Notes under the pieces: model-generated
Told to the model about the DNA's origin: nothing
Database searches by the model: none
What the model saw: the letters and a program-made list of their open reading frames with translations, nothing else
Program-made: the position numbers and the translations under genes
Part shown: in pieces, positions 1,967 through 54,898 of the stretch
How positions within the stretch are numbered: the stretch's first letter is position 1
Layout: the number at the start of each line of letters is the position of its first letter
NCBI GenBank assembly: GCA_017503735.1
Contig: JAFVSN010000006.1
Span: 1 to 64,000 of the forward strand
DNA from: Lachnospiraceae bacterium
GTDB taxonomy: Bacteria > Bacillota > Clostridia > Lachnospirales > Lachnospiraceae
DNA: 64,000 bases
Reading direction: 5' to 3'

Positions 1967-2230
1967 AAACAAAAGGCTTTCGCCTCCCAAAAGAGACGAA
2001 AGCCAAATCTTCCGCGGTACCACTCTCATTCAAAGGCACACGCCTTTGCACTTTCTCATCCGATAACGTGGATGAAACGTTGTCACCTACACAAAGCAAC
2101 ATCAAATGTTACTCCTTCCGCAACAAAGCTCCGAGGGGAGTTCCACAAAGCCATCTATCGTCTCACACCGGCCGACGACTCTCTGAAAGTCTGACTGCAT
2201 GTACTGGTCCTCATCCTTGCAAATTCCATA
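1967..2230 (-). ncRNA. T-box riboswitch (leucine type) with terminator
   Basis: Read on the minus strand, the leader of leuS contains the T-box signature GAGTGGTACCGCGG (2012-2025). It is followed by a terminator with stem GGCTTTCG / CGAAAGCC (arms 1997-2004 and 1975-1982) and a T-rich tail ending near 1967. Upstream is a stem I-like region containing GGAACTCCCCTCGGAG. The CTC at 2140-2138 is the likely specifier codon, matching a leucine synthetase downstream. T-boxes of this layout bind uncharged tRNA at the specifier and at the T-box bulge to favour antitermination. The exact 5' end is inferred from the promoter. Confidence 0.95.
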
Positions 2231-6327: not shown

Positions 6328-6367
6328 TTGTATTAGTTATTATAATACAAGTGTGACCAAATGTCAA
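6328..6367 (-). promoter_or_regulatory. Promoter and inverted-repeat operator of the gntR operon
   Basis: The minus strand has TTGACA (6367-6362), 17 nt, then TATAAT (6344-6339). The inverted repeat TTGTATTA-N7-TAATACAA (6328-6350) covers the -10 region. This is the layout expected for a self-repressing YtrA-type regulator; binding itself is inferred. Confidence 0.85.
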
Positions 6368-6388
6368 TTAAAACCTTTTTTTATTCAA

Positions 6389-6709
6389 GGGGCTGTCGCA
6401 TGAATGAATGCACAATGAAATTAAGTATCGCGAGTTCTTGCTTTTTCATGCAAATATCTACAGCAAAAGCCGAGTAATCATATATTTGATTTTTGCTTTT
6501 CCCGAAGGGTCGCGTACTTAGCGTAGTCGATATCACCTCTTAACGGTTCTACGTCTCGAGGCCACACCCGAGAGACGTTTAGAACCGGTTAGAGGAAGAT
6601 TGACGGAGCGTTGCGACTTGCAAACAATCAAATATATGATTACTCGGCTTTTGAAGGTATACCCGCCAAAAAGCAAGAGCGGGACTGCGCACTTTCATGC
6701 GACAGCCCC
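6389..6709. repeat. Large nested palindromic element, copy 1
   Basis: The outer arms GGGGCTGTCGCATG (6389-6402) and CATGCGACAGCCCC (6696-6709) are perfect complements. Inside, AAAAGCCGAGTAATC... (6465-6491) pairs perfectly over 27 nt with 6626-6652. A 117-nt core (6499-6615) holds CCCGAAGGG, a hairpin from CCTCTTAACGGTTCTA...TCTCGAG and its complement CGAGAGACG...GGTTAGAGG, and GACGGAGCGTTGCG. The core is nearly the same in copy 2. No coding frame is credible here. It fills the gap between the esterase stop and the gntR promoter. It is not a family I recognise. Confidence 0.9.
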
Positions 6710-6717
6710 GCTTCATT

Positions 6718-9101
<2,384 letters not shown>

Positions 9102-9121
9102 GCAATATATCTCATTTTGTT

Positions 9122-10843
9122 TTATGCCAAAGCCATAAGCGCGTCCGTTAACGCTTTAAGCTTTGCGTCCGCATCTGCATTATCCGTACCCTTTACACCG
9201 ATGTAGAACTTAATCTTCGGCTCGGTACCGGACGGACGAACGCATACCCATGCATCATCGGTCAAGTCAAAGTACAGTACATTGGAATTCGGAAGACCGG
9301 TGGTCGTCACCTTGCCGGTAGCAAGGTCAAGCACCGTATCCTTCTTGTAGTCACGGAAGGATACCACATCGTAAGCCCCCAGCTTCTTCGGCGGGTTTGC
9401 ACGGAAGCCGTCCATAATTGCCTGAATCTGAGCCACACCGTCTGCGCCCTTTAAGGTCATGGTCTGGATTCCTTCCTTGAAGAAACCGTACTTTTTGTAA
9501 ATGTTCTGCATCTGATCCCAAAGGGTCAGCCCCTTGGTTCTGTAATATGCAGCAGCCTCACAAAGCATCATAACCGCTACGATTGCATCCTTATCTCTTG
9601 CGTGAGTACCTACAAGACAGCCGTAGCTTTCTTCAAAACCGAATTCGTAATGGCCTACGCCCTTTTCCTCGAACCACTTAATCTGCTCTCCGATATATTT
9701 AAACCCGGTTAATACTTCGATTAACTTCACATTGTACTCTTCGGCAACCTTATCGGTCATATTTGTAGATACGATGGTCTTAATAATCGCACCGTCCTCA
9801 TGGATTCTGCCAAGAGCCTTACGCTGGCTCATCAGGTATTCACAAATAAGAAGACCGGACATATTACCGGTAAAGGACATATACTCACCGGTTACGGAAT
9901 CCTTCGCATACACACCGAGACGGTCTGCATCCGGATCGGTCGCCATAATAACATCCGCATCCACCTTCTTTGCAAGAGCAAGTGCCAAAGCAAATGCCTT
10001 CTCATCCTCCGGATTCGGATAAGACACCGTGGAGAAATTACCGTCCGGCTGCTCCTGCTCCGGAACCACGTATACCTTTTCAAATCCCAGTTCTTTCAGC
10101 ACGCGCTGTACCGGAAGATTACCGGTACCGTGAAGCGGAGTGTACACAATCTTAAGTTCCTTCCCCTGCTCACGAATCATATCCGGATAAATAATCTGGG
10201 TCTTTAACGCTGCAACATACTTATCATCAATATCCTTGCCGATAATGGTTAACAGTCCTTTTGCCTCTGCATCCGCACGGGACATGGTCTTTACAGTCTC
10301 ATATCCTTCCACTGCATTTACTTCCGCAATAATCTGAACATCCTTCGGCGCGGTAATCTGTGCACCGTCTTCCCAGTATACCTTATAACCGTTATACTCT
10401 GCCGGGTTATGGCTGGCGGTAATTACAATACCGGAAATACATCCAAGCTCACGCACCGCAAAGGAAAGCTCCGGCGTCGGTCTTAAGGAATCGAACAAAT
10501 AACTCTTGATACCGTTTGCGCAAAGGCAAAGTGCGGCAGCTTCCGCAAACTCCGGAGACATATTTCTGGAATCGTAAGCGATCGCAACACCCTTAGCCTG
10601 TCCGTTCTCTTTTAAAATGAAATTAGCCAGACCCTGGGTTGCCTTACTTACGGTATAAAAATTCATACGATTGGTACCGGCACCGATGACACCGCGAAGC
10701 CCTGCGGTACCGAACTCCAGCTCACGATAGAAGCGGTCCTTAATCTCCGCATCATCACCCGCAATCGCCTTAAGCTCGGCTCTGGTTGCCTCGTCGAAAT
10801 AGGCATTGTTACACCATTCTTCATACACTTTCATGTAATCCAT
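9122..10843 (-). CDS. pgcA: Phospho-sugar mutase (phosphoglucomutase type)
   Basis: It interconverts glucose-1-phosphate and glucose-6-phosphate (or the mannose equivalents), linking glycolysis with glycogen and cell-wall precursors. The 573-aa length fits the clostridial/Bacillus PgcA group. All four active-site loops are visible: phosphoserine loop VITASHNPAEYNGYK (about residue 144), metal loop DPDADRLG (about 304), sugar loop GFEESYGC, and phosphate loop RPSGTEPKIKFY (about 538). The start follows AGGAGG with a 9-nt spacer. A consensus-like promoter lies at 10910-10938. The substrate preference (glucose or mannose) cannot be set from sequence alone. Confidence 0.96.
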   Translation of the reverse strand: MDYMKVYEEWCNNAYFDEATRAELKAIAGDDAEIKDRFYRELEFGTAGLRGVIGAGTNRMNFYTVSKATQGLANFILKENGQAKGVAIAYDSRNMSPEFAEAAALCLCANGIKSYLFDSLRPTPELSFAVRELGCISGIVITASHNPAEYNGYKVYWEDGAQITAPKDVQIIAEVNAVEGYETVKTMSRADAEAKGLLTIIGKDIDDKYVAALKTQIIYPDMIREQGKELKIVYTPLHGTGNLPVQRVLKELGFEKVYVVPEQEQPDGNFSTVSYPNPEDEKAFALALALAKKVDADVIMATDPDADRLGVYAKDSVTGEYMSFTGNMSGLLICEYLMSQRKALGRIHEDGAIIKTIVSTNMTDKVAEEYNVKLIEVLTGFKYIGEQIKWFEEKGVGHYEFGFEESYGCLVGTHARDKDAIVAVMMLCEAAAYYRTKGLTLWDQMQNIYKKYGFFKEGIQTMTLKGADGVAQIQAIMDGFRANPPKKLGAYDVVSFRDYKKDTVLDLATGKVTTTGLPNSNVLYFDLTDDAWVCVRPSGTEPKIKFYIGVKGTDNADADAKLKALTDALMALA

Positions 10844-10909
10844 AGAAAAAACCTCCTGCTATTTTTTACTGATAAAACGTCAGTTTTCAAATCGTTTGTC
10901 TTACCTTTT

Positions 10910-10938
10910 ATTATATAATAAAATCACCTCAAAGGCAA
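10910..10938 (-). promoter_or_regulatory. Promoter of phosphoglucomutase gene
   Basis: The minus strand shows TTGCCT (10938-10933), 17 nt, then TATAAT (10915-10910), about 70 nt upstream of the ATG. Confidence 0.75.
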
Positions 10939-10968
10939 GTTTTTTTGTGTATTAAACAAGTATGACGA

Positions 10969-11286
10969 TGTCGCATATTTTGAATTGCAACGGCATCGGG
11001 CGTGGCGAACTCTTGCGATTCATAACATACTATTGCATAAAACAGTTACGGAATATTCTGTTTATTTTTGATTTCCCGAAGGGGCGCGCTTTTAGCGCAG
11101 TCGAAATCGCCTCTTAGCGGTTCTAAGTCTCGAGAACGCTCCCGAGAGACGTTTAGAACCGGTTAGAGGAAGTTTGACGGAGCGTTGCGCTCTAAAAAAT
11201 AAACAGAATATTCCGTAACTGTTTTAATAGAATGCCGTAATCGCAAGAGTGGGGCTGCGCATTCAAAGCATGCGACAGCCCCACTC
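10969..11286. repeat. Large nested palindromic element, copy 2
   Basis: The 117-nt core (11073-11189) has exactly the same length as in copy 1 and differs at about 14 positions by hand count. The stem around it is different in sequence: 11039-11069 (AAAACAGTTACGGAATATTC...) pairs perfectly over 31 nt with 11195-11225. The outer arms TGTCGCATATTTTGAATTGC (10969-10988) and GCATTCAAAGCATGCGACA (11259-11277) pair imperfectly. CTCTTGCGATT and AATCGCAAGAG also pair. The right end forms its own hairpin GAGTGGGGCTG / CAGCCCCACTC. It lies just beyond the pduL stop. No gene is seen in it. Confidence 0.9.
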
Positions 11287-11296
11287 GTTCTCATTC

Positions 11297-11875
11297 TTAT
11301 AAAGACTTTAAAATTTCACCCATCATGTTCGGGGTTGCACCGATTGCATTGGACTCATCGGTATCAATGTGCATTGCATCTGCGAAGGTCTCACTGACGC
11401 GAACCACAACATCACCAAGCACTGCCTGTCTTCCGTCGGTGTCCATCTTCACCCAAACCACATCCTTATTCTTTAAGCCAAGCTTTTCAGCGGTTTCCGG
11501 AACCATATGGATGTGACGCTTTGCAACAATAACGCCCTCGGAAATCTCAACCTCACCGCACGGTCCCACGATCTTACATCCCGGTGTTCCGGCAATGTCA
11601 CCGCTTTCTCTTACTACTACCGGTACGCCGATGGAACGGGCATCCGTTGCAGAAAGTTCAACCTGGGTCGCCGGTCTTTCCGGTCCGAGAATCGAAACAT
11701 TGGCAAGGGACTTCTTCGGTCCTACAATCGTAACTCTTTCCTCACAAGCATACTGTCCCGGCTGGGAAAGATCCTTCTTCTTGGTAAGGGTTGCACCTGC
11801 ACCGAACAAAATCTCCAAATGTTCCTTCGTCACATGAATATGGCGAGCGGAAGTCTCCACTAAAATCTGAGCCAT
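11297..11875 (-). CDS. pduL: Phosphate acyltransferase, PduL family
   Basis: It exchanges CoA and phosphate on acetyl or propanoyl groups. In clostridia without Pta it makes acetyl-phosphate for acetate kinase. The 192-aa protein has two similar halves, each with a metal-binding His motif (SARHIHVT near residue 10 and VAKRHIHM near 115). These are the zinc-binding signatures of PduL. No N-terminal encapsulation peptide for a microcompartment is obvious, and no microcompartment genes are nearby, so it is probably the free, housekeeping form. An acetate kinase gene lies at 49439-50629. It is followed by palindromic element copy 2. Confidence 0.95.
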   Translation of the reverse strand: MAQILVETSARHIHVTKEHLEILFGAGATLTKKKDLSQPGQYACEERVTIVGPKKSLANVSILGPERPATQVELSATDARSIGVPVVVRESGDIAGTPGCKIVGPCGEVEISEGVIVAKRHIHMVPETAEKLGLKNKDVVWVKMDTDGRQAVLGDVVVRVSETFADAMHIDTDESNAIGATPNMMGEILKSL

Positions 11876-17751: not shown

Positions 17752-17850
17752 AGCAGCGGGATGCGGAATCTGCACCGCAAGATTTCTCTTTTCGTTCCAT
17801 CGACAACTCCCCGTCCGACAGACACTTAACGCGCAAATTCCTACTCTGCT
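17752..17850 (-). ncRNA. Tetrahydrofolate riboswitch
   Basis: On the minus strand, the leader reads AGCAGAGTAG, then GCGCGTTAAGTGTCTGTC, and ends with TCTTGCGGTGCAG and GCATCCCGCTGCT. The terminal AGCAG/CTGCT helix, the GCGTTAAGTGT segment and the CGGTG...GCATCC segment match the THF aptamer consensus. Downstream, the hairpin arm AATCCCC (around 17737) is complementary to the folT ribosome site GGGGATT (17649-17655). Control may therefore be translational. The neighbouring folT and folC genes support the ligand. Confidence 0.95.
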
Positions 17851-24242: not shown

Positions 24243-25025
24243 ATGTACATTCACTTCGTTTCCTTAAATAACGCACAGGAGCCGGACTTTATCCAAGAAC
24301 GCAAACACGGCATCATCGACTTCCTCTTTTTGCGTTTCCATGCAAAAACCACGCTGATGCTAGGGGATAAAACATATACTCTTACGAAGCCCTGTATGTT
24401 TTTAATCGACTCCTACACCCCATATAAATACTTCTCCAACAGTGAAAACTATACCGATGATTATTTGCACTTTTCCACCGAAAACCGGCAGCAATTCTTG
24501 AGTGAATTGACTTTTCCTTTGAACACTCCGATTTACTATTCAAACGATAGTGCAATTTCAGATCTTTTGCAGTTAATCCAAGCGGAACATGCAGAGAAAA
24601 ACCGTCTTGCAGCCAAGTCCATTGACTTGCTGATTCGTTGTCTCTTTGTAAAGGTTTCGGAGGTTTGGCTACAAAGCCAGCAAATCAACACCTCCGTCCC
24701 TCACTATTACGATTTACTACAGGTGCGGGATGCCGTTCTCTCCGCACCGGAACACCCATGGAAAATAGAAGAATTGGCGGACTTGGCTCATCTGTCCCCT
24801 TCCTATTTTCAAGTAGTCTACAAAAAAGCCTTCGGCATTACCTGTATGACGGAGGTAATCAACGCAAAACTGGAACAGGCGAAACTATTACTCACTTCCA
24901 CCGAACTTCCGGTCAGTGCCGTAGCCACCGAGGTAGGATACAACGAAGTGTATCATTTCATAAGGCAATTCAAAAAAAGCACCGGAATGACTCCCGGGGC
25001 CTTCCGAAAAAAAGTGGCATTATAA
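24243..25025 (+). CDS. AraC family regulator of the xylan cluster
   Basis: This 260-aa transcription factor has an N-terminal cupin-like sensor part (about 1-150) and a C-terminal double helix-turn-helix AraC domain (about 165-258). The latter has WKIEELADLAHLSPSYFQVVYKKAFG and VSAVATEVGYNEVYHFIRQFKKSTGMTP-type residues. The start at 24243 is set by GGAGGTGATTTTG-ATG. It lies between, and divergent from, the GH43 operon, and convergent with GH8. A role as activator responding to xylo-oligosaccharides is inferred from position only. Confidence 0.93.
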   Translation: MYIHFVSLNNAQEPDFIQERKHGIIDFLFLRFHAKTTLMLGDKTYTLTKPCMFLIDSYTPYKYFSNSENYTDDYLHFSTENRQQFLSELTFPLNTPIYYSNDSAISDLLQLIQAEHAEKNRLAAKSIDLLIRCLFVKVSEVWLQSQQINTSVPHYYDLLQVRDAVLSAPEHPWKIEELADLAHLSPSYFQVVYKKAFGITCMTEVINAKLEQAKLLLTSTELPVSAVATEVGYNEVYHFIRQFKKSTGMTPGAFRKKVAL

Positions 25026-25027
25026 AG

Positions 25028-25070
25028 CACGGGGCTGTCGCATCAAGATGTGCGACAGCCCCTCGTTTTT
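25028..25070. terminator. Bidirectional terminator with the GGGGCTGTCGCA stem
   Basis: GGGGCTGTCGCATC (25031-25044) pairs with GATGTGCGACAGCCCC (25047-25062) and is followed by CGTTTTT. It separates the converging araC and GH8 genes. The stem is the same sequence as the outer arms of palindromic element copy 1 (6389-6402), but with no insert. Confidence 0.9.
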
Positions 25071-54697: not shown

Positions 54698-54898
54698 CGG
54701 TCGCGCAAGGCTCATTCTTACGTCAGAAAAACGTCAAATAATCGCCTCGGGATTTTGGATATGGCATTTTGCATTCCCGAAGGGTCGCGCTTTTAGCGCA
54801 GTCGATATCACCTCTTAACACAAGCAAAATAGAATAGCGAAAATTCCAAGGCGATTATTGGCGTGCCTAGAATCCGCAAGAATGAGCCTGTGCGACCG
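54698..54898. repeat. Large nested palindromic element, copy 3 (short core)
   Basis: CGGTCGCGCAAGGCTCATTC (from 54698) pairs with GAATGAGCCTGTGCGACCG (to 54898) around a bulge. AATAATCGCC (54738-54747) pairs with GGCGATTATT (54850-54859). The left part of the core, TTCCCGAAGGGTCGCG...CACCTCTTAA (54774-54818), is nearly the same as in copies 1 and 2; the right half of the core is absent. It sits between the argH terminator and the catalase gene. No gene is seen in the 484-bp gap. Confidence 0.85.

What the first reader, a model, noticed from the sequence alone, without database searches (positions are those of the whole stretch)
6389..6709. Undescribed family of large nested palindromes with a conserved 117-nt core
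Copies at 6389-6709 and 10969-11286 share a 117-nt core of identical length with about 14 differences by hand count; a third copy (54698-54898) keeps only the first 45 nt or so. The core has CCCGAAGGG, a GCGC-TTTTA-GCGC-type hairpin, a long CCTCTTA.../...TTAGAGG hairpin and a GACGGAGCGTTGCG tail. All three lie just 3' of a coding gene (esterase, pduL, argH) and contain no credible frame. The core has the same strand in all three, while the flanking genes do not. I know no Rfam or IS family with this core. It may be a structured RNA or a MITE-like DNA element.
Basis: partly seen in the sequence, partly recalled or inferred. Interest (0 to 1): 0.85.

Follow-up and report, generated by a model that had tools for sequence, protein, structure and literature searches.

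The report
Interchangeable hairpin cores in mobile palindromes
A conserved folded segment of about 117 bases sits at the tip of a large palindrome at roughly twenty sites in this bacterial genome; the arms differ at nearly every site yet stay self-complementary, and it is likely a mobile element, which matters because an unexplained database "RNA" family, TwoAYGGAY, has the same build.

Summary
The two full window copies share a 117-nt core with exactly 14 differences. The core recurs about 20 times in this genome, in 9 of 10 genomes of its genus (own included) and, by covariance model, in 24 of 397 genomes of the family (22 of 334 genera). It matches no Rfam family. Covariation supports its fold: 22 of 28 pairs change on both sides.

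The surprise is the arms. They are palindromic in 114 of 116 copies, almost unrelated between sites, and change in concert between orthologous copies. Isolated arm mismatches show no wobble excess (G.T 41, A.C 41); the core shows G.T 34 to A.C 4. So the core looks conserved as a folded single strand, while the arms look kept complementary at the DNA level.

Most copies lie downstream of genes. At one terminator the site is empty in 6 species, holds this core in one and a TwoAYGGAY core (RF01731) in two (one partial). A third core sits in a MITE of about 194 bp with an 8-bp target duplication. In some other genera a CGTC tag stands about 30 nt from the core.

Best reading: a MITE/REP-like mobile superfamily with interchangeable folded cores. 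The transposase was not found.

The parts
6389..6711 (+). Copy 1, whole nested palindrome (element between the esterase and GntR genes)
   Evidence: Same gene pair without element in G004 (L280, by eye); no core hit beside the esterase gene in 6 species in all, but in the others the next gene differs
6499..6620 (+). Copy 1 core (family A), inner hairpin type I
   Evidence: 131 bits with model R1
6464..6494 (+). Copy 1 left inner arm, private sequence
   Evidence: 97% complementary to 6623-6653
6623..6653 (+). Copy 1 right inner arm
6679..6711 (-). Terminator-like hairpin of the esterase gene; its inverted partner is at 6389-6413
   Evidence: read by eye
10964..11284 (+). Copy 2, whole nested palindrome (between pduL and phosphoglucomutase genes)
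   Evidence: empty in 6 of 9 species that have the locus
11073..11194 (+). Copy 2 core (family A), inner hairpin type I
   Evidence: 127 bits with model R1
11038..11069 (+). Copy 2 left inner arm, private sequence
   Evidence: 100% complementary to 11195-11226
11195..11226 (+). Copy 2 right inner arm
10997..11014 (+). Foot motif CGGGCGTGGCGAACTCTT at the base of the left arm
   Evidence: CGGGCGTGGCG on the left flank in 40 of 116 copies, on the right in 3 (<=2 mismatches)
11249..11284 (-). Terminator-like hairpin of pduL, also present in empty sites
   Evidence: read by eye
10964..10997 (+). Diverged inverted copy of the pduL terminator at the far end of copy 2, not seen in empty sites
   Evidence: read by eye
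54698..54898 (+). Copy 3, palindrome with truncated core
   Evidence: full-length orthologues L210 and L192
54774..54820 (+). Copy 3 core remnant (first 45 nt of the family A core)

Best explanation
It is a dispersed palindromic element, a conserved folded core at the tip of self-complementary arms that are nearly private to each site, and it is likely spread as a MITE/REP-like mobile unit by an unidentified transposase supplied in trans. Shown: a covarying core fold; arms that change in concert; presence or absence at an orthologous site; residence mainly downstream of genes; different core types inside homologous arms; and TwoAYGGAY and a third core in the same architecture. Inferred: (1) the core is recognised as a folded single strand, RNA or, I think more likely, single-stranded DNA; (2) replication template switching between the arms rewrites one arm from the other, so complementarity lasts while sequence drifts, and this can copy neighbouring DNA such as a terminator into the far arm; (3) cores are exchanged between sites by recombination or re-insertion.
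For: Copies: 20 matches in the own genome at E<=1e-6, and 9 of 10 genus genomes positive, own included; 24 of 397 family genomes, 22 of 334 genera, own genus included. Core covariation: 22 of 28 pairs change on both sides; 0 of 500 shuffles reach any of five measures; slid controls give 3-10 pairs. Arms: own-arm alignment median 70 against 18 for swapped arms in 116 copies, 114 above the control's 95%; isolated mismatches G.T 41, A.C 41, transversion 50. Concerted change in 45 orthologous pairs: 285 columns against 22 of the crossed control pattern, with 445 single-arm columns; in columns with two unchanged columns on each side, 24 concerted, 14 single, 0 crossed. Likely fresh copies in G009: 8 concerted, 54 one-sided and 1 uncompensated double change in 11 copies. 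Core, excluding an end pair: G.T 34, A.C 4. Mobility: filled and empty pduL-pgm sites; core-C unit of 193-200 bp, 10 copies, flank identity 0.69 at N=8 against 0.25-0.32 at other N. Shared architecture: TwoAYGGAY arms 67 against 17, 22 of 25 above control 95%. Core types: 16 of 24 orthologous locus groups hold more than one type, and 28 of 39 different-type pairs keep homologous arms (rough typing). Location: convergent 53, tandem 49, divergent 8, against 12, 63 and 55 in other gaps. Other genera: CGTC 28-33 nt right of the core in 13 of 16 copies from 11 genomes, shuffled mean 0.37.
Against: No transposase was found. Y1 (PF01797) occurs in 2 of 10 genus genomes, and one of those two has no core; IS66 (PF03050) in 0 of 10; no inverted TIR pair flanking a gene was seen at nine other TIR sites in G009, though no protein search was made there. 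Over all aligned arm mismatches, loops included, A.C exceeds G.T 219 to 151 (P 0.0005), which is a modest wobble excess on the strand opposite to the core's. The 8-bp TSD is shown only for core C, and there only 6 of 10 copies match at 7 or 8 of 8 positions, 2 at 6 and 2 at none. Five G002 core-A copies show flanking repeats of about 5-11 nt by eye, with no common length; the best mean identity at any offset and length tested was 0.54. In genome G359, 8 of 8 copies have a sharp border between a shared inner part and wholly private outer arms, which slow drift alone does not explain. The G.T excess in the core leans on a structure predicted for that strand. The CGTC tag is absent from both window copies and, at that spacing, from all 14 copies fetched from G326 and G359. 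Many copies persist at orthologous sites, so movement is not frequent.
Confidence: 0.45

Rival explanations
1. Tip insertion: cores with a short flank insert into the apex of hairpins that already exist (terminators, other palindromes), so the outer arms are the two halves of the host hairpin and nesting is the record of successive insertions.
For: In G359 the shared inner part (77-97% identity) ends sharply and the outer arms are private yet pair with their own partner (26-43 against at most 17 across copies, 8 of 8). A core-C match (85% over 78 nt) with its own arms lies between the two halves of a core-A copy (L267). Cores A and TwoAYGGAY occupy a similar outer frame at pduL in different species (frame read by eye). 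Inner module swapped inside one outer palindrome (L145/L168).
Against: At pduL the six empty sites show the terminator but not the inner arms (read by eye; no core by BLAST). Apparent recent bursts carry their long arms with them. The terminator is whole on one side and copied on the other, not split.
Confidence: 0.27
2. A functional structured RNA gene or 3'-UTR element, as Rfam assumes for TwoAYGGAY, that happens to be multi-copy.
For: Core covariation; G.T well above A.C on one strand of the core; over all arm mismatches a modest wobble excess on the opposite strand (219 to 151); many copies kept at orthologous loci; location downstream of genes.
Against: Isolated mismatches in arm stems show no wobble excess (41 to 41; TwoAYGGAY G.T 8, A.C 14). 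Patchy presence at pduL-pgm. Groups of copies with shared ends, and target duplications for core C. Both orientations relative to tandem genes (35 antisense, 14 sense).
Confidence: 0.17
3. A host-serving terminator or replication/chromosome-structure element, with copies kept because the hairpin itself is useful.
For: 102 of 110 copies lie downstream of at least one gene; terminator hairpins form part of the outer arms at several loci (by eye).
Against: Empty pduL sites already have a terminator-like hairpin. A conserved 117-nt core is not needed for termination. Distribution is patchy across genera.
Confidence: 0.06

Closest known systems
Rfam RF01731 TwoAYGGAY
   Same: Up to 33 dispersed copies in the same genomes, private palindromic arms (22 of 25 above control), same pduL site in two other species, one partial
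   Different: Core sequence and fold differ; family A loci L256 and L146 gave no RF01731 match at E<=1
Prokaryotic MITEs (review PMC10969869, passages seen)
   Same: Short, non-coding, intergenic, inverted repeats; core C shows an 8-bp TSD and shared TIRs
   Different: Conservation is inside-out: interior conserved across genera while the terminal arms are nearly private to each site; parent IS not found
CGTC-tagged REP elements (PMC3733652, abstract and passages seen)
   Same: Palindrome with a CGTC tag at one foot (13 of 16 copies in 11 other genomes), mainly downstream of genes, no dedicated transposase
   Different: REPs are 20-40 bp; these are roughly 180-320 bp with a conserved core at the tip. 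The tag lies 3' of the core strand. The window copies and 14 copies of two further genomes lack it at that spacing
RAYT/IS200-IS605 single-stranded DNA transposition (PMC3733652 passages; otherwise recalled)
   Same: Would use a folded single-strand hairpin plus a foot tag
   Different: No Y1 transposase in 8 of 10 genus genomes
Template-switch maintenance of hairpins (PMC8794818, abstract and passages seen)
   Same: Concerted multi-base changes keep stems perfect
   Different: Described there for RNA genes and their mostly short stems; here for arms of 30-100 bp in a dispersed bacterial element

Membership tests
Rfam families (any) | Score above a family's gathering threshold | tested here: not met
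   Window at gathering threshold: only T-box and THF, neither at the copies; 6350-11320 at E<=5: three weak hits, all below gathering score
TwoAYGGAY RF01731 | Match to the covariance model | tested here: not met
   Six loci scanned at E<=1; hits lie on other elements in L173, L186, L252; none in L256 and L146, which carry family A cores
TwoAYGGAY-like architecture | Core at the tip of private palindromic arms, dispersed copies | tested here: met
MITE | Terminal inverted repeats shared by copies | tested here: inconclusive
   Shared among G002 core-A and G009 core-C copies; both arms similar in only 20 of 843 same-genome core-A pairs
MITE | Target-site duplication of fixed length | tested here: inconclusive
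   Core C: 8 bp, 6 of 10 copies at 7-8 of 8 positions. Core A in G002: 5 copies, no common length
MITE | Autonomous parent with the same ends | tested here: inconclusive
   No inverted TIR pair around a gene at nine other TIR sites in G009 (no protein search there); IS66 absent in 10 of 10. Other transposase families were not tested
REP (CGTC superfamily) | CGTC tag at one end of the palindrome | tested here: inconclusive
   13 of 16 copies of 11 other genomes at 28-33 nt; 0 of 14 at that spacing in G326 and G359, with CGTC at 40 nt in 3; none near the cores of window copies 1 and 2 on the core strand
REP | 20-40 bp palindrome | tested here: not met
   Elements are several times larger
RAYT-mobilised element | Y1 tyrosine transposase in carriers | tested here: not met
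   PF01797 in 2 of 10 genus genomes; not tested in other genera
Structured RNA | Covariation of the core | tested here: met
Structured RNA | Transcript of defined ends | not testable with these tools
   No expression data available

The most novel reading that the evidence does not exclude
A new class of mobile element in which interchangeable folded cores (family A, TwoAYGGAY and core C) are carried at the tip of palindromic arms that are free in sequence and, in some genera, fixed in length, with a tag at the foot. The element moves as a single-stranded hairpin, the arms are rewritten by replication template switching, and TwoAYGGAY is a transposon core rather than an RNA gene.
Probability: 0.32. 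Interest if true: 0.9.

Novelty: new variant of a known kind. Interest (0 to 1): 0.73.

Why it matters
Bacterial dispersed repeats are usually conserved at their ends. Here the middle is conserved and the ends are nearly private, with strong compensatory change. That is a warning: base-pair covariation, the standard proof of a functional RNA, may arise at the DNA level, and the balance of G.T to A.C mismatches can help to separate the two cases. It offers an explanation for the orphan Rfam family TwoAYGGAY and gives a natural system in which concerted palindrome evolution can be measured.

Tried and rejected
Rejected or unsupported: an Rfam family for core A. A Y1/RAYT mobiliser in this genus. 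A reverse transcriptase: PF00078 matches in 4 of 10 genomes, over the cut-off in 3, not tracking copy number. An IS66 mobiliser, guessed from recalled features (GTAA ends, 8-bp TSD, none). A plasmid or phage vehicle: BLAST of the copy 1 core found nothing in plasmids or phages, and an exact 24-mer pattern nothing in IMG/VR. A genus-only family: searches suggested it, but the covariance model overturned it. Core near-identity as a clock for insertion age: core types differ between orthologous loci with homologous arms.

A first arm test used loose gap costs and separated poorly (control maximum 119, above many observed scores); one search replaced it. A first within-versus-between arm test was weak: within-copy identity exceeded between-copy in 39 of 70 pairs (means 0.72 and 0.68). 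One search replaced it with column patterns on 45 of those pairs, chosen for homologous arms. The pairs share genomes and are not independent, and segments replaced outright would count as concerted; therefore repeated the count in conserved context (24 concerted, 14 single, 0 crossed).

Rows dropped: one search used 116 of 138 core hits (the others were truncated or near an edge). One search used 110. One search used 25 of 30 TwoAYGGAY loci (5 not matched by BLAST; 4 of those 5 read, one too short). One search left out the truncated window copy. One search used 16 of 30 core-A copies examined from other genera; one search examined the other 14.

Literature: the listings (titles and starts of abstracts; empty) show no description of this core or of TwoAYGGAY as a mobile element. 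Surveys of stem-loop families (PMC2267715, PMC1590033) were listed but not read. Only open-licence PubMed Central papers were searchable.

Full report
WHAT WAS CHECKED. Copies 1 and 2 carry a 117-nt core with 14 differences, and copy 3 keeps its first 45 nt. Full-length orthologues of copy 3 exist in two other species (L210, L192). Folding is far beyond chance. None of the copies matches an Rfam family at gathering score.

HOW WIDE IT IS. The own genome (3.08 Mb, 58 contigs) has 20 core matches at E<=1e-6, and 9 of 10 genus genomes, own included, have at least one. An exact 24-mer scan of GTDB species genomes found 52 stretches, all titled Lachnospiraceae MAGs, 40 of them naming deer or water buffalo gut (the own genome may be left out there). 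BLAST found nothing in 31 genomes of other genera. A covariance model built from 45 cores of the genus then found the core in 24 of 397 family genomes and 22 of 334 genera, own genus included, with at most 9 hits per genome because only 9 candidates were scored. One carrier, G127, is nearly finished (5 contigs).

THE CORE. On 24 aligned cores (12 from this genus, 11 from other genera, plus the truncated copy 3), 22 of 28 pairs change on both sides. No shuffle of 500 reaches any of the five measures, and sliding the partner by 1-3 columns leaves 3-10 such pairs. The alignment was fitted to the model, so it leans towards the structure, but the 11 rows from other genera were not used to build it. 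Excluding one end pair (G.T 21), the core holds G.T 34 and A.C 4; 21 further cells hold other mismatches. This count leans on a structure predicted for that strand; at interior pair 33-151 it is 11 to 1.

THE ARMS. In 116 copies with 300 nt on each side, left and right arms align at median score 70, against 18 for arms swapped between copies; 114 exceed the control's 95% point. Both arms are similar between different loci in only 20 of 843 same-genome pairs. Mismatches isolated within stems are G.T 41, A.C 41 and transversions 50 with three matches on each side; with 2, 4 and 5 matches the first two are 56:61, 23:29 and 15:24. Over all aligned mismatches, loops included, they are 151:219, a modest excess on the strand opposite to the core's. 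A folded RNA should favour G.U strongly on its own strand, so I read the arms as DNA palindromes, with that modest excess unexplained. In 45 orthologous pairs with homologous arms, 285 columns changed in both arms together, against 22 of the crossed control pattern, 445 with one arm changed, 274 shared mismatches and 303 mixed. With two unchanged columns required on each side, the counts are 24 concerted, 14 single and 0 crossed. In what looks like a recent burst in G009 (11 copies) the paired cells, arms and core together, show 54 one-sided and 8 concerted changes and 1 uncompensated double change; in G002 (6 copies) 51, 16 and 2. One-sided changes dominate in young copies and concerted ones gain in older comparisons, as expected if one arm is later rewritten from the other. 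PMC8794818 (abstract and passages seen) proposes template switching for the creation and upkeep of hairpins.

THE SITES. Of 110 copies with both neighbours callable, 53 lie between convergent genes, 49 between tandem genes and 8 between divergent ones; other long gaps in the same loci give 12, 63 and 55 (simple ORF caller). At pduL-pgm, 9 species have the locus. The window species holds core A. G006 holds a TwoAYGGAY core (BLAST E 4e-49) and G007 a partial one (44 nt). Six show neither and have an ordinary terminator-like hairpin there; one of these, G009, has a core C on the other side of pduL. In each of the three filled sites the far end carries an inverted, species-matching copy of that terminator, loop letters included (read by eye). 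At the esterase gene the picture is less clean: the window species holds core A, G009 a mini-core seen by eye only, G006 runs off its contig and 6 species show none, but only G004 has the same next gene.

THE RELATIVES. TwoAYGGAY (RF01731) gives 15-33 hits per genome in 6 of 10 genus members, fewer in 3 and none in 1, and also occurs in G013 (20) and G017 (7). Its arms are private and palindromic too: median 67 against 17, 22 of 25 above control 95%, G.T 8, A.C 14. Four copies from G013 and G017 agree, and two of these show a CGTCC tag near the arm's foot by eye. Core C occurs in 8 of 10 genus members, 29 times in G009, where ten copies with both ends are 193-200 bp long with an 8-bp target duplication: 6 match at 7-8 of 8 positions, 2 at 6 and 2 at none. 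So cores look modular: 16 of 24 orthologous locus groups hold more than one inner-hairpin type, and 28 of 39 different-type pairs keep homologous arms (typing allowed four mismatches and is rough).

THE FOOT. In this genus a motif CGGGCGTGGCG lies at the base of the left arm, a median 78.5 nt from the core, in 40 of 116 copies, against 3 on the right and 1 in reverse (<=2 mismatches). TwoAYGGAY copies show it on the left in 3 of 25, with 1 reverse match on the right. In 16 copies from 11 genomes of other genera, a CGTC tag lies 28-33 nt right of the core in 13, against a shuffled mean of 0.37, and the aligned palindrome stops within about 1 nt of a CGTC tag in 8 of the 16. A further 14 copies from G326 and G359 lack it at that spacing (CGTC at 40 nt in 3), and so do the window copies. 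CGTC tags and missing dedicated transposases are described for a class of REPs (PMC3733652, abstract and passages seen), but those are 20-40 bp and the tag's side appears to differ.

MECHANISM. I favour a MITE/REP-like element moved in trans: supported for core C by target duplications and, by presence or absence, likely for core A. Its core would be read as a folded single strand, and its arms would be kept complementary by DNA-level copying. Tip insertion into existing hairpins is the main rival and is favoured by G359, where all 8 fetched copies have a sharp border between a shared inner part and private outer arms, and by a core-C copy lying inside a core-A copy (L267). No transposase was identified, and no expression data were available.

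Noticed in passing
window 1989-2226 (-) and 17752-17850 (-): T-box leader and THF riboswitch, both above Rfam gathering score.
   Followed up: no
window 25024-25069: Terminator-like palindrome with the same GGGGCTGTCGCA arms as copies 1 and 2; five matches in the window against 0.18 expected, three of them in copies 1 and 2. This terminator sequence seems to be repeated across the genus.
   Followed up: partly
L267 2827-3047: A core-C match (85% over 78 nt) with its own arms lies between the two halves of a family A core: apparently a nested insertion.
   Followed up: partly
L148, L218, L221: A shared extra hairpin (CGCGAC...GTCGCTCGGTCGCGGGCG...) is inserted after CCCGAAGGGTCGCG within the core.
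   Followed up: no
L265, L181: Clusters of a further short repeat, TTTACCATGAGAA / CATGGTAAA, in intergenic DNA.
   Followed up: no
window core of copy 1, core positions 42-44 and 91-93; TwoAYGGAY and core C copies: All three core families seem to keep a TTA/TTA (central T.T) mismatch between covarying stem pairs; noted by eye, in core C on the opposite strand.
   Followed up: no
L020/L266, L022/L268, L285: Mini-cores keep only the CCCGAAGGG and GCGTTGCG parts, without the inner hairpin (by eye).
   Followed up: no
G009 loci L381, L382: What look like core-less remnants of the G009 element, with parts of the left and right arms joined directly (by eye).
   Followed up: no
G326 loci L400-L405: What looks like a recent burst of a shortened core A with shared arms in another genus (by eye).
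   Followed up: no
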